Source: Thermoclostridium stercorarium subsp. stercorarium DSM 8532 (GTDB lineage Bacteria > Bacillota > Clostridia > DSM-8532). From it: a stretch of 64,000 bases of DNA. Under the pieces are notes generated by a model. The model was not told the DNA's origin, made no database searches, and saw only the letters and a list, made by a program, of their open reading frames with translations. The DNA lies in contig NC_020134.1 in assembly GCF_000331995.1 (NCBI RefSeq), forward strand, positions 248,001 through 312,000. The letters are read 5' to 3'. Positions 23,554 through 29,908 of the stretch are shown piece after piece. Made by a program: the position numbers and the translations under genes. Each line of letters starts with the position of its first letter. Position 1 is the stretch's first letter.

Positions 23554-24582
23554 GTGTCTGCCTTGAATTTCCTTAAATGGACGGATATAATAATTAAAAA
23601 AATCTCAAGCAGGGCAAGATCGGGTATGAAGGTGAAAAGTTTTCTGAAATACGTGGAAATCCAAACGAAAACTGCGAGTATGATTCCTTTTGCATTGGGT
23701 ACGGCATATGCTTTTTACAGATTCGGCACTTTCAGTCTGAAAAATTTCGTTCTGATGCTTGTTTCACTTCTCTCCTTCGACATGACGACAACGGCAATTA
23801 ATAATTACTTTGATTATAAAAAGGCGAGGAAAAAGACGGGATATGGTTTTGAAAAGCACAATGCCATTGTCAGGGATAATATAAAGGAAGCCGAGGCGGT
23901 TGCAGTTATAGTGGTTCTTGGGCTTATAGCCGTTATTGCGGGATTTGTGCTTTATCTTAATTCAAATGCAATTGTTTTGATTTTGGGAATGATGTCCTTT
24001 GCGGTGGGAGTTCTGTATACCGCAGGTCCGGTGCCCATTTCAAGAATGCCGCTGGGCGAAGTGTTCTCAGGTTTTTTCATGGGTTTTATAATACCTTTTC
24101 TTGCGGTTTATATCCACGTGGCGGATGAGCGGATAGCTGCCCTTTCAATGCAACGGGGAATCCTGGAACTGAAGGCCAATATACCCGAAATAGTGAGGAT
24201 TTTTCTCATTTCGGTGCCTGCGGTTACGGGAATAGCCAACATCATGCTGGCCAATAATATATGTGATATAGAGGACGATTTGGAAAACCGGAGATACACT
24301 CTTCCGGTTCACATTGGCAGGGAAAAGGCGTTAATTTTGTTTAAAATACTGTATTATGCCGCATTCGCCGAGATTTTGATTTCGGCCGTTGCAGGCCTTA
24401 TTCCCGCTACTTCGCTGTTGGTTTTTGCAACTTTCATTCCGGTCCGGAAGAACATTCACAGGTTCATTGAACTGCAGACAAAAAAGGACACATTTTCCTT
24501 GTCGGTTAAAAATTTCGCAGTCATGAACATGGTTTTGATCTTAAGTACTGCAGTTGCAATTATTATTCAATGTTTTCGGTAA
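23554..24582 (+). CDS. UbiA-family prenyltransferase, MenA-like
   Basis: Membrane enzyme that transfers a polyprenyl chain to an acceptor, 342 residues with about eight hydrophobic segments. The first Asp-rich motif is NNYFDYKKARKK near residue 88 and the second is NNICDIEDDLENRR near residue 233. The pattern KYVEIQTKTASMIPFALGTAYA is seen in MenA-type proteins. The GTG start at 23554 is supported by AAAGGAGGGG 9 nt upstream; ATG 23626 would give a more typical length but has no good site. No other quinone genes are nearby, so the acceptor is uncertain. It diverges from trkA. Confidence 0.75.
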   Translation: MSALNFLKWTDIIIKKISSRARSGMKVKSFLKYVEIQTKTASMIPFALGTAYAFYRFGTFSLKNFVLMLVSLLSFDMTTTAINNYFDYKKARKKTGYGFEKHNAIVRDNIKEAEAVAVIVVLGLIAVIAGFVLYLNSNAIVLILGMMSFAVGVLYTAGPVPISRMPLGEVFSGFFMGFIIPFLAVYIHVADERIAALSMQRGILELKANIPEIVRIFLISVPAVTGIANIMLANNICDIEDDLENRRYTLPVHIGREKALILFKILYYAAFAEILISAVAGLIPATSLLVFATFIPVRKNIHRFIELQTKKDTFSLSVKNFAVMNMVLILSTAVAIIIQCFR

Positions 24583-24595
24583 AATAACATAGCAT

Positions 24596-25630
24596 TCATT
24601 CAGCCACGGGCAGTGTTATTTTTATAAATGCGCCTTCACCTGTGTTTCCTGCTGTTATTGTACCGCTGTGCTTTTCAATAATGCTTTTTGCTATTGAGAG
24701 CCCAAGGCCGAAATGTCCCCTTTTTCCTTTGTAAAACCTTGTAAATACGTTTTTTAGATCTTCGGTGTCAAACCCCGGTCCGTCGTCGGAGATTATAAGC
24801 TCGATGTTATTCTCACCGGTGATTCGGGAATTTATTTCAATCTTATGCCTGGCATACCGTATACCGTTGTCCAGTATATTTGTAATCGCACGGGAGAGTT
24901 TTTCCTCGTCTCCCGAAAGCCTGACCGATTCCGGTTCTATTTTTGTGCAGATTTCCTTTCCTGATTGCTGGGCAATTCCTTTCATCCGCATGGCAACATA
25001 ATGTAACAGTTCATGAAAGTCAAGTACTTCAAAATTGTATGGTTCCTCGATGGAATCCAGCCTTGAAAGATATAGCAGGTTTTCGACAAGCCTGGTCAGT
25101 CGCTGAGTCTCGTCAAGGATGACTTTCACTGCCTCATCGGTTTCAACGACACCGTACTCAATGCCTTCGGCGTAACTGCGTATTGACATTATCGGGGTCC
25201 GCAGTTCGTGGGAGACGTTCTGCAGGAAAGTTTTCTGGGCCAAATCGTAAGATTCAAGTTTTTCAACCATTATGTTAATATTGTCGACAAGTTCCAGAAT
25301 TTCGTCGTCAGCCGGAATTTGTATACGGTTAAACTTTCTTTCGGATATGTTTCGGATATGGGCGCAGAGCTTGGACAAAGGCGTTGAAATTTTTTTGGAA
25401 AGGTATGACGAAAACAGCGTGGCAATTAACGCGGCTACAAACAAAACAATCAGCAGGATGAGATTCATTGTCCGCTGGAGTTCCGCAATTTTGTCCATCC
25501 TTGTATAGAAAACAATCTTGCTTAAATTTGACGATGGATTGTTTACCCTGACCACAACGGCGGCATGTGCCGAAAGGGGAAGTAAACGGTTATATTCGCG
25601 CGGCTGTCGAAATGGGATATATAACTGCAA
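24596..25630 (-). pseudogene. Sensor histidine kinase, 5'-truncated
   Basis: C-terminal two thirds of a membrane histidine kinase. Present: one hydrophobic segment (LILLIVLFVAALIATLFSSYL), a HAMP-like linker, the H-box SHELRTPIMS with the phospho-His, N-box LDNGIRYARH, and G-boxes DDGPGF and GLGLSIAKSII. Missing: the N-terminal membrane helix, most of the sensor domain, any ribosome site, and the response regulator that normally sits upstream. The kinase sequence is recognisable only to about 25570. The first 20 or so codons of the open reading frame (to 25630) are antisense to an S-layer-homology domain. A deletion or misassembly joined the two. Any product would need an internal start. Confidence 0.75.
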
Positions 25631-27589
25631 TGCCTGACGGACTGTTTCATCCCAATGATTCGGTAACGTATGCTCAAATCGCCACGACTCTGGTAAAACT
25701 GCTGGGATATTCCGACGAAGATCTGACAGGATACTGGCCGTATAACTGCCTCAGTTTATTGGAAAATCTGAATGTGTTGGACGGAATAACATATAAACCG
25801 CAGGACGGTGTAACCGTGAAGGAACTGGCGGTAATAGTCGACAGACTGTTTAAAACCAGGATGAAAAACGGCTCGGAGTATTTTATCGATACAACGCCGA
25901 ATTTTAAAGAAGTGATTGTTTTGAAAACCGCGACAGTCGATTCTTCGATGGATCAAAAAAGGATTGAAACCGATAACGGAGTTTTCTACCTTGATGACGG
26001 AATATTCATGCCTGAATTGGGATATCGCTATACAGTACGTACAGAAGATAATATAATTACCGCCATGGCCGGGCAAACTTTGAGTTATGAAAAATATTCC
26101 GTAAAAGAGGTGTCAGCGGATGCAGTTGTTCTGAATAACCAGAAAAAAGTCAGGCTGAACGGAAACATATCTTACTATTATAACGGCAAGACGATTGAAG
26201 CAAGTGAGGTTTTGGGTGTTCTGAAAACAAATTCATCGGTTATAATCGCATCAAGAAACGGGAGTGAAATTTACGGGGTGGTTTTTGATCCCGTCTACTC
26301 GGCACCGAAAATAATAACTGCTTCAATGACAGGTGATGCCCTTGAAAGGCTTTATTTCGGAAAGTTTATTGACAGAAACGGTAAGAAAATAAATCCCTCC
26401 CAACTGGAAGTAAATGACGTGGTGTATGAAATTACTGATATTTGGGGTAACAACGGTTATGTGGTTGTGTATGACAATGAGGTGTCGGGGGAGATAACGA
26501 ACATATCACCGAATTTGATGGCCCCTGAGTCAATTGAACTGGGCGGGGTATCTTATCAGCTGGATTCGTCATTCCCTGTTGAGAAAATAAATAAATCGGG
26601 TACGATCGAGGTGGGCCAGACCGTAACTCTCTTTCTTGGAAAGGATAATAAGGTTGTGGATGCCGTTCTGAGCGGAACAGGCGAAAATGACAATTATGTA
26701 CTCGTTTTGAACGCCTACACCGAAAAATCCCAGGAAATTGAGAATTACGGGGAAAAATTATACTTTGTCACACTTCTTCATACAGACGGCAGTATAAAAA
26801 CTTATCTCGCCAAAAAGGATATGTCGGCCCTGAAAGGTGATCTCGCCACTTACAGCATTATAGAAACAGGGGAAGACTATGACACTGTTTCATTGACAGC
26901 GGTTGAATATCTCCCCAGGAAAACTCATGAAATATTCAAGGATGAACGAAAGATTGACAATCTGTATGTGGCGGACAACGTGGTGATATTCAATATGATT
27001 AATAATGTTTACGGAAGAAACAGTGACGCGGAAATTCTCAAATGGTCGGATTTGCCTTCAGGCAAAATTGAGGCTTCGAAACTTAAATACATTCACACAA
27101 CCGGTGATTTTATGGATATAGATGTTTTGTATTTTGATAATATTCTGGACGAGGGAATTTATTACGGCCTTGTTACCGATTACAGGACCGAGTATAAAAA
27201 AAGCGGTGAAATCAAGACGGTAACCCAGACAATTACAATGCTGGTGAAGGGCGAGGAATACACTTATGAAACCGGAGAACCCATATCGGGCATTATAAAA
27301 GGCGCTGTTTTAAAACTCAGAATGTCGGGCAATTCTGTCCGTTGAGGACATAAAGGAACCCTATGTAACTTCTGACGAAGTCCAGGCCTCGGATACGTCC
27401 AGAATACGTATAAACGACACCACATACAAATATCACAGGGATTTTGCGGTATATCAATTAAGAACAGACGGCACGTACAAGAGAGTAGGAACGGACAAAA
27501 TCACCGATGAAAATACCAAGTCGGTCTCCCTGTATCTGGACAAACCCTTGTCATACGGCGGGAAAGTGGTAATGGTGATTATAAAGTAA
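25567..27589 (+). pseudogene. SLH-domain surface protein, 5'-truncated and frameshifted
   Basis: Remnant of a secreted S-layer-homology protein. It opens in mid-domain with VNGYIRAAVEMGYITAMPDG...PNDSVTYAQIAT, the second half of an SLH repeat, followed by another partial SLH repeat and about 450 residues of repetitive beta-rich sequence. There is no signal peptide or start codon context. The frame stops with TGA at 27343-27345. One frame over, reading continues AILSVEDIKEPYVTSDEV...GGKVVMVIIK to a stop at 27587-27589. Loss of one G in the GGG around 27327 would rejoin them. The 5' break abuts a truncated kinase on the other strand near 25570. Confidence 0.75.
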
Positions 27590-27760
27590 ACCTGCATCGG
27601 ATATTTAGGAAGGCTTTGCGGGAGGAATGACATTCCGGCTCTTTCTGGACAAGATATGAGCAGTTTATGACAAATGATGATTAGTATTCGCACATGGCAT
27701 TCGGGTAGAATGGAGATGATAAAAAAGACGGTTTTAAATCGTGCACAGGGAGGGTAAGTG

Positions 27761-29908
27761 ATGGAAAACAAACCTGTTTATCTGGATCCGAGTTATTCGT
27801 TTGAAGAACGCGCAAAAGATCTTGTGTCAAGGATGACCATTGAGGAAAAGGTATCTCAGATGCTTTACAATTCACCTGCAATCGAAAGGCTCGGAATTCC
27901 TGCATATAACTGGTGGAACGAAGCACTTCACGGTGTGGCGCGGGCCGGAACGGCGACCATGTTCCCGCAGGCTATCGGAATGGCGGCTACGTTTGACGAA
28001 GAGCTTATTTATAAAGTGGCGGATGTTATTTCAACAGAGGGCAGGGCAAAATACCATGCAAGCAGTAAAAAAGGCGATCGCGGGATATATAAGGGTTTAA
28101 CATTCTGGTCCCCTAATATCAACATATTCAGGGATCCAAGATGGGGACGCGGCCAGGAAACCTACGGGGAGGATCCTTACCTCACGGCAAGGCTCGGTGT
28201 TGCCTTTGTAAAAGGCCTGCAGGGAAACCATCCGAAATACCTTAAGGCTGCGGCATGTGCAAAACATTTTGCCGTTCACAGTGGTCCCGAATCCTTAAGG
28301 CATGAATTTAATGCCGTAGTGTCCAAAAAGGATCTGTATGAGACCTATCTGCCGGCTTTTAAGGCTTTGGTTCAGGAAGCAAAAGTTGAATCGGTGATGG
28401 GAGCGTATAACCGTACAAACGGTGAACCCTGCTGCGGCAGTAAGACCCTTCTTTCCGATATTCTCAGAGGGGAATGGGGATTTAAGGGACATGTGGTATC
28501 CGACTGCTGGGCAATACGCGATTTCCATATGCACCATCATGTTACGGCAACAGCTCCCGAATCAGCCGCCCTTGCAGTACGCAATGGCTGCGATCTGAAC
28601 TGCGGAAACATGTTCGGAAACCTGTTAATAGCCCTTAAGGAAGGCTTGATCACTGAAGAGGAGATAGACAGAGCCGTAACAAGGCTTATGATTACAAGAA
28701 TGAAACTGGGAATGTTCGATCCTGAAGATCAGGTGCCTTATGCATCGATTTCGTACGACTTCGTCGATTGCAAGGAACACAGAGAGCTCGCGCTGGACGT
28801 GGCGAAAAAATCCATTGTCCTGCTAAAGAATGACGGCCTGTTGCCGCTTGACAGGAAGAAAATCAGGTCCATCGCCGTTATAGGCCCGAATGCCGACAGC
28901 CGCCAGGCTCTGATTGGAAACTACGAAGGAACGGCGTCGGAATATGTAACCGTTCTTGACGGAATCAGGGAAATGGCAGGGGACGATGTAAGGATTTACT
29001 ATTCAGTCGGCTGTCATTTATACAAGGACAGAGTTGAGAACCTCGGCGAACCCGGGGACAGAATCGCGGAGGCAGTTACCTGTGCCGAACACGCCGACGT
29101 GGTTATCATGTGCCTTGGCCTTGATTCAACCATTGAAGGCGAAGAAATGCATGAAAGTAATATATACGGTTCGGGCGACAAGCCTGATCTTAACCTTCCG
29201 GGGCAGCAGCAGGAACTGCTGGAGGCTGTTTACGCCACCGGTAAGCCGATTGTTCTTGTACTGCTTACAGGAAGTGCTCTGGCAGTAACGTGGGCCGATG
29301 AGCATATCCCGGCAATACTGAACGCATGGTATCCGGGGGCGCTGGGAGGAAGGGCAATTGCCTCGGTACTGTTCGGTGAAACCAACCCGTCAGGGAAGCT
29401 GCCGGTTACATTCTATCGTACCACCGAAGAACTTCCCGACTTTACAGATTACTCAATGGAAAACAGAACCTACAGGTTTATGAAGAATGAAGCGCTGTAC
29501 CCGTTTGGATTTGGTTTGAGCTATACGACGTTTGACTACAGCGATCTGAAGCTGTCGAAGGATACAATCAGGGCAGGGGAAGGCTTTAACGTTTCGGTAA
29601 AGGTAACGAATACCGGGAAAATGGCCGGTGAAGAAGTGGTCCAGGTTTACATCAAGGATTTGGAAGCAAGCTGGAGAGTTCCCAACTGGCAGCTTTCGGG
29701 AATGAAGAGAGTAAGGCTTGAAAGCGGTGAAACTGCTGAAATTACTTTTGAAATACGGCCTGAACAGCTGGCTGTTGTTACCGATGAGGGAAAAAGCGTT
29801 ATCGAGCCGGGTGAGTTTGAAATTTATGTCGGCGGCTCGCAGCCGGATGCAAGAAGCGTCAGGCTTATGGGAAAAGCGCCGCTGAAAGCCGTGCTGCGCG
29901 TGCAGTAA
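27761..29908 (+). CDS. GH3 glycoside hydrolase, beta-xylosidase/beta-glucosidase type
   Basis: Predicted intracellular exo-glycosidase, 715 residues with no signal peptide. The order is GH3 TIM-barrel domain, alpha/beta sandwich domain (from about 350) and C-terminal fibronectin III-like domain (from about 610). NWWNEALHGVAR near residue 48 is typical of the xylosidase-like branch. The nucleophile is Asp248 in VVSDCWAI, and KHF near residue 168 is the conserved KHF motif. ATG 27761 has AGGGAGGG 6 nt upstream; GTG one codon earlier is too close. It is followed by an AraC regulator. Substrate (xylo- or gluco-oligosaccharide) cannot be fixed from sequence. Confidence 0.9.
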   Translation: MENKPVYLDPSYSFEERAKDLVSRMTIEEKVSQMLYNSPAIERLGIPAYNWWNEALHGVARAGTATMFPQAIGMAATFDEELIYKVADVISTEGRAKYHASSKKGDRGIYKGLTFWSPNINIFRDPRWGRGQETYGEDPYLTARLGVAFVKGLQGNHPKYLKAAACAKHFAVHSGPESLRHEFNAVVSKKDLYETYLPAFKALVQEAKVESVMGAYNRTNGEPCCGSKTLLSDILRGEWGFKGHVVSDCWAIRDFHMHHHVTATAPESAALAVRNGCDLNCGNMFGNLLIALKEGLITEEEIDRAVTRLMITRMKLGMFDPEDQVPYASISYDFVDCKEHRELALDVAKKSIVLLKNDGLLPLDRKKIRSIAVIGPNADSRQALIGNYEGTASEYVTVLDGIREMAGDDVRIYYSVGCHLYKDRVENLGEPGDRIAEAVTCAEHADVVIMCLGLDSTIEGEEMHESNIYGSGDKPDLNLPGQQQELLEAVYATGKPIVLVLLTGSALAVTWADEHIPAILNAWYPGALGGRAIASVLFGETNPSGKLPVTFYRTTEELPDFTDYSMENRTYRFMKNEALYPFGFGLSYTTFDYSDLKLSKDTIRAGEGFNVSVKVTNTGKMAGEEVVQVYIKDLEASWRVPNWQLSGMKRVRLESGETAEITFEIRPEQLAVVTDEGKSVIEPGEFEIYVGGSQPDARSVRLMGKAPLKAVLRVQ

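What the first reader, a model, noticed from the sequence alone, without database searches (positions are those of the whole stretch)
25555..25590. Head-to-head double truncation: kinase and SLH protein fused at their 5' ends
A histidine kinase on the minus strand loses its N-terminal half at the same point where an SLH protein on the plus strand begins in mid-repeat. The kinase's response regulator, both promoters and the SLH signal peptide are all missing. One deletion between two divergent genes, or a misassembly, explains all of it. If real, the strain lost a two-component system and a surface protein in one event.
Basis: partly seen in the sequence, partly recalled or inferred. Interest (0 to 1): 0.65.

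Follow-up and report, generated by a model that had tools for sequence, protein, structure and literature searches.

The report
Deletion scar in exporter gene cassette
One deletion of about 5.4 kb removed the middle of a gene cluster (a signalling pair, a three-gene export pump and the start of a surface protein), leaving two broken gene ends joined head to head; relatives still carry the intact cluster, so this is ordinary gene loss, although the cluster itself is an interesting lead.

Summary
An MAG of another genus in the same family (G013, contig JAAYXD010000222.1) carries the undeleted form: kinase + response regulator, divergent from a membrane-fusion protein / ABC ATPase / MacB permease / SLH-protein operon. 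A third genus (G041) has the same six genes in the same arrangement. The window keeps only kinase residues 146-467 and SLH-protein residues from ~105, numbered on the relative. The 5,388 bp between those points in G013 (5.5 kb in G041) are reduced to 18 bp or less at 25567-25585. No counterpart of the lost parts above 42% identity was found elsewhere in the single-contig genome. The SLH remnant has a second lesion, a frameshift near 27333, as expected of a pseudogene. In congeners the flanking UbiA and GH3 genes are neighbours with no cassette between them. In G013 the cassette sits at a different site that is empty in a sister species. It looks like a sporadically acquired module that was later gutted. 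Misassembly is unlikely, but reads were not available.

The parts
24596..25566 (-). 3' remnant of a sensor histidine kinase gene (relative's residues 146-467: TM2, HAMP, HisKA, HATPase_c); no native start, no promoter
   Evidence: tblastn 68% identity to the intact 472-aa kinase of G013; Pfam domains; no convincing ribosome-binding site before any in-frame start
25560..25570 (.). deletion junction; exact base not resolvable, at most a few bases of possible overlap
   Evidence: base-by-base comparison with both breakpoint regions of the relative
25567..27345 (+). 5'-truncated SLH-protein gene remnant, frame 1 (starts inside SLH repeat 2; no signal peptide, promoter or SD)
   Evidence: 61% identity to residues 105-679 of the intact 768-aa protein; SLH Pfam match begins at model position 11-13
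27325..27345 (+). frameshift lesion in the SLH remnant followed by a premature stop
   Evidence: homology moves to another frame and continues at 67% identity over residues 693-768
27338..27589 (+). out-of-frame 3' end of the SLH-protein gene, down to its original stop
   Evidence: translation SVEDIKEPYV...GGKVVMVIIK* matches the relative's C-terminus
23554..24582 (+). UbiA-family prenyltransferase, left flank of the cassette site
   Evidence: Pfam PF01040; next to GH3 in G001, G002 and G012
24583..27631 (.). whole gutted cassette, lying between UbiA and the conserved leader of GH3; not present in congeners
   Evidence: empty-site comparison
27758..29908 (+). GH3 glycosidase, right flank of the cassette site
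   Evidence: Pfam PF00933/PF01915; orthologues in G001/G002/G012 directly follow UbiA

Best explanation
The junction is the scar of one internal deletion of about 5.4 kb in an ancestral cassette of about 8.4 kb. The cassette encoded a sensor kinase and OmpR-type regulator on one strand and, divergently, a MacA-like membrane-fusion protein, a LolD/MacB-type ATPase, a MacB-type permease and an SLH-domain wall protein. Shown: the undeleted arrangement in two relatives, the collinear match of both remnants to its two ends, absence of the searched missing parts from the genome, a second inactivating frameshift, and an empty flanking site in congeners. Inferred: the join arose by illegitimate recombination between non-repeated sequences; the cassette arrived by horizontal transfer into the UbiA-GH3 interval; both remnants are unexpressed pseudogenes; the lost machine was a signal-regulated exporter of antimicrobial or cell-wall-active compounds.
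For: G013 carries intact HK-RR / MFP-ATPase-permease-SLH. G041, another genus, has the same six genes and orientation (with SLH). The gap between the two homology points is 5,388 bp in G013 and about 5.5 kb in G041 (HK point 6764, SLH point 12273), against 18 bp or less here. Own-genome searches find no MFP match at orthologous identity (best 26% over a short stretch, E 2.4; 21% at E 9e-5), permease at most 38%, regulator at most 42%, and no kinase or SLH N-terminus. SLH frameshift. UbiA-GH3 adjacent with about 135-150 bp between matches in G001, G002, G012.
Against: Breakpoints are defined against relatives at 60-70% protein identity, so the ancestral sequence is not known base by base. Only one frameshift and no in-frame stop in about 2.9 kb of remnant, and no clear excess of changes at conserved SLH positions over the intact relative (14 against 11 of 92), so decay is young and loss of function is not proven for the kinase core. 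No reads were available.
Confidence: 0.9

Rival explanations
1. Assembly or finishing error: the genome really contains the intact cassette and about 5 kb was dropped when contigs were joined.
For: Reads could not be inspected. Published genomes of the likely species were 454-based with in-silico or PCR gap closure (PMC4102724, PMC3593316).
Against: The junction has no repeat longer than a few bases on which an assembler could collapse. The missing genes are absent from the single-contig genome. The SLH remnant carries a separate frameshift.
Confidence: 0.06
2. The two remnants are functional: a short constitutive kinase started from an internal codon, and a trimmed SLH protein.
For: The kinase core has no stops and its catalytic boxes can be read (FLQNVSHELRTP, NILDN, DDGPGFD, GLGLS). 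SLH positions invariant in relatives are nearly as well kept as in the intact homologue.
Against: Promoters and the cognate regulator are lost; no plausible ribosome-binding site before in-frame starts; no signal peptide on the SLH part; a frameshift cuts off its last ~80 residues.
Confidence: 0.08
3. The join is a breakpoint of an inversion or translocation, with the missing genes elsewhere in the chromosome.
For: Would also give an abrupt double truncation.
Against: No kinase N-terminus, SLH N-terminus, MFP, regulator or permease at orthologous identity anywhere in the genome; both remnants lie together with the relative's order and orientation.
Confidence: 0.02

Closest known systems
Gram-positive MacAB-type exporters: YknWXYZ of Bacillus, SP0785-0787 of Streptococcus pneumoniae, AS-48EFGH of Enterococcus (PMC5985334)
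   Same: The lost genes encode a membrane-fusion protein, a separate ATPase and a MacB_PCD/FtsX permease, as in these systems.
   Different: Here the operon ends in an SLH-anchored surface protein of about 770 aa and faces a divergent two-component system; no such partner appears in the passages of the review that were read.
Two-component-regulated detoxification ABC systems (BceRS-BceAB type)
   Same: Kinase and OmpR-type regulator next to a MacB-superfamily transporter.
   Different: The kinase has a long extracellular domain between two TM helices rather than a short intramembrane sensor (read from the sequence); the transporter has an MFP partner.
S-layer-homology proteins (SpaA, Sap)
   Same: Residues 38-206 of the intact relative are modelled like the SpaA SLH trimer (Z 18, rmsd 2.4-2.7 A).
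   Different: The remaining ~560 residues are a beta-rich region without a Pfam family; function unknown.

Membership tests
Internal deletion scar | An intact form with intervening genes exists in relatives, collinear with both remnants | tested here: met
   G013 and G041
Internal deletion scar | Missing segment absent from the rest of the genome | tested here: met
   (kinase and SLH N-termini, MFP, regulator, permease; the ATPase alone was not searched genome-wide)
Internal deletion scar | Junction supported by spanning reads or an independent assembly | not testable with these tools
   no reads or second assembly held
Pseudogene | Additional inactivating lesion beyond the truncation | tested here: met
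   SLH remnant frameshift near 27333; none seen in the kinase remnant
Pseudogene | No expression | not testable with these tools
   RNA-seq and proteome exist for the likely species (PMC4102724), but the per-gene tables could not be read
MacAB-type exporter (lost part, in G013) | MFP with HlyD/lipoyl domains, MacB_PCD + FtsX permease, LolD/MacB-like ATPase, in one operon | tested here: met
MacAB-type exporter (lost part, in G013) | Export of a drug or peptide | not testable with these tools
   no assay
SLH wall-anchored protein | Signal peptide plus three SLH repeats forming the trimer fold | tested here: met
   Fold of the intact relative with a hydrophobic N-terminus read by eye; the window copy lacks the signal peptide, repeat 1 and the start of repeat 2

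The most novel reading that the evidence does not exclude
The gutted cassette belongs to an undescribed class of clostridial exporter in which a MacAB-type pump is co-encoded with an SLH-anchored beta-rich protein that would continue the export path through the wall and S-layer. It is switched on by its own two-component system and is gained and lost as a module. The SLH gene follows the exporter genes in five genera (G013, G041, G025, G052, G039).
Probability: 0.35. Interest if true: 0.55.

Novelty: new member of a known kind. Interest (0 to 1): 0.28.

Why it matters
It explains two odd truncated genes as one gene-loss event, and it tells annotators to call both as pseudogenes rather than as an orphan kinase and an SLH protein. 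The intact cluster bears on an open question raised for Gram-positive MacAB systems (PMC5985334): what the adaptor connects to when there is no outer membrane. A co-encoded wall-anchored SLH protein is a concrete candidate.

Tried and rejected
Inversion or translocation: rejected by own-genome searches. Repeat-mediated deletion: no repeat longer than a few bases at the junction; weak direct repeats in the region do not flank it. Relaxed constraint in the SLH remnant: only 14 against 11 departures at 92 invariant positions, not informative. Promoter scan: match counts near the shuffle mean, so no support for a new promoter. Composition: GC of the remnant (42.4%) is close to the window (43.1%), so no compositional sign of recent transfer. 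Literature: no paper found combining SLH proteins with MacB operons under the terms used; the species genome papers do not mention this locus in the passages read. PDB fold search of the SLH protein: only the SLH trimer is clear; matches of the beta-rich part (OB/SH3-like, Z 7-8) are within background.

Full report
WHERE. The window is C1:248001-312000 of a complete, single-contig genome of 2,974,379 bases. Size and gene content fit Thermoclostridium (Clostridium) stercorarium, whose published genomes are 2.96-2.97 Mb (PMC3593316; PMC4102724).

OBSERVATION. The minus-strand ORF ending at 24596 has HATPase_c, HisKA and a sub-threshold HAMP match. Its similarity to an intact kinase stops at residue 146, at window base 25567. 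The plus-strand ORF from GTG 25567 is similar to an intact 768-aa SLH protein from residue 105, inside the second SLH repeat, at 25585. The two homologies abut within 18 bp. At base level, the kinase side matches the relative up to GCGGCAT (25560-25566) and the SLH side reads AT GTG CCG AAA from about 25565, so the switch lies at 25560-25570 with at most a few bases of possible overlap. The kinase lost about 31% of its length rather than half.

UNDELETED FORM. In G013 (MAG contig JAAYXD010000222.1, another genus of the family; L049/L051) both genes are whole and lie in one cluster: kinase (472 aa) and OmpR-type regulator (233 aa) on one strand, and on the other strand a membrane-fusion protein, an ABC ATPase (225 aa), a MacB_PCD/FtsX permease and the SLH protein (768 aa), with overlapping or touching genes. 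G041, of a third genus, has the same six genes in the same orientation: kinase 47%, regulator 66%, MFP 39%, ATPase 74%, permease 67%, SLH protein 42% identity. The DNA between the kinase point and the SLH point is 5,388 bp in G013 and about 5.5 kb in G041. In the window it is 18 bp or less. One deletion removes the kinase N-terminus, regulator, intergenic promoters, MFP, ATPase, permease, SLH signal peptide, SLH repeat 1 and the start of repeat 2.

NOT MOVED ELSEWHERE. Searches of the whole genome with the lost parts give no kinase or SLH N-terminus, no MFP at orthologous identity, a best permease at 38% and a best regulator at 42%, all in other loci. The ATPase alone was not searched in the whole genome; the deleted segment has no DNA match in the window. 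Orthologues would be expected at 60-75%.

SECOND LESION. At 27325-27345 the SLH homology leaves frame 1, which ends at a TGA at 27345, and continues in another frame at 67% identity to the original stop at 27589. The site is not a homopolymer run, so it is not a typical pyrosequencing error. This independent lesion favours a real pseudogene over an assembly artefact. The kinase remnant has no further lesion, and conserved SLH positions are about as well kept as in the intact relative, so the decay is young.

HOW THE CASSETTE GOT THERE. In congeners G001 and G002, and in G012 of another genus, the UbiA gene is followed directly by the GH3 gene with about 135-150 bp between the matches, and the pre-GH3 leader (GGACAAGATATGAGCA...GACAAATGATGA) is recognisable in the window at about 27632-27690, to the right of the SLH remnant. 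The window's UbiA-GH3 distance is 3,175 bp. In G013 the cassette lies elsewhere, between fhs and a rubrerythrin-like gene; that interval is empty in sister species G017, with sequence continuing on both sides (AATTAAATTCAAG / TTTGTATATTTTTTC), and holds unrelated DNA in G008. In G041 it lies in a third context. The simplest reading is a module gained sporadically at different places. Independent loss from a common site is less likely because the sites differ. No integrase, terminal repeat or transposon was seen, so the route is unknown. Whether the deletion came before or after the arrival of the cassette cannot be told.

FUNCTION OF WHAT WAS LOST (inference). The domain set is that of Gram-positive MacAB-type exporters, which protect against antimicrobial peptides and similar compounds (PMC5985334). 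The SLH protein is the last gene of the operon in G013, G041, G025 and G052, and follows the exporter genes, in a different order, in G039. Its modelled N-terminus is a complete SLH trimer (Z 18 to SpaA-SLH), followed by a beta-rich region without a family. Other family members (G009, G014, G018, G020, G022) carry the SLH protein without the exporter next to it, so the link is frequent but not obligatory. The SLH family itself is narrow: 10 of 291 genomes of the class at E <= 1e-100.

ALTERNATIVES. Misassembly is disfavoured (no repeat at the junction, missing genes absent genome-wide, second lesion) but not excluded without reads. A functional short kinase or SLH protein is disfavoured (no promoter, signal peptide, SD or cognate regulator). 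Inversion or translocation is refuted.

VERDICT. It is an ordinary deletion scar whose extent is now known. The lasting value is in the intact cluster it points to.

Noticed in passing
L051 8066-14273; L119/L109 (G041); L059 634-6751; L120 7498-13770; L122 7286-14391: An SLH-domain protein with a beta-rich C-terminal part follows MFP, ATPase and MacB-type permease genes in five genera, which suggests a wall-anchored partner of a Gram-positive MacAB-type pump.
   Followed up: partly
L118 / L117 / L116 (fhs to rubrerythrin interval): The site that holds the cassette in G013 is empty in G017 and holds about 0.8 kb of unrelated DNA in G008, so this interval varies among sister species.
   Followed up: partly
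L102 3056-4096 (G006, UbiA-GH3 interval): In G006 the same UbiA-GH3 interval holds another gene (346 aa, looks like a GH105-type hydrolase by eye), so this slot also varies between genera.
   Followed up: no
window 27325-27345: Frameshift in the SLH remnant that removes its last ~80 residues from frame; not at a homopolymer.
   Followed up: yes
L057 3209-8918 and L058 1992-7734: In G024 and G019 the SLH protein lies next to a different MFP-ATPase-permease set (permease only 34% identical) placed after it rather than before it.
   Followed up: partly
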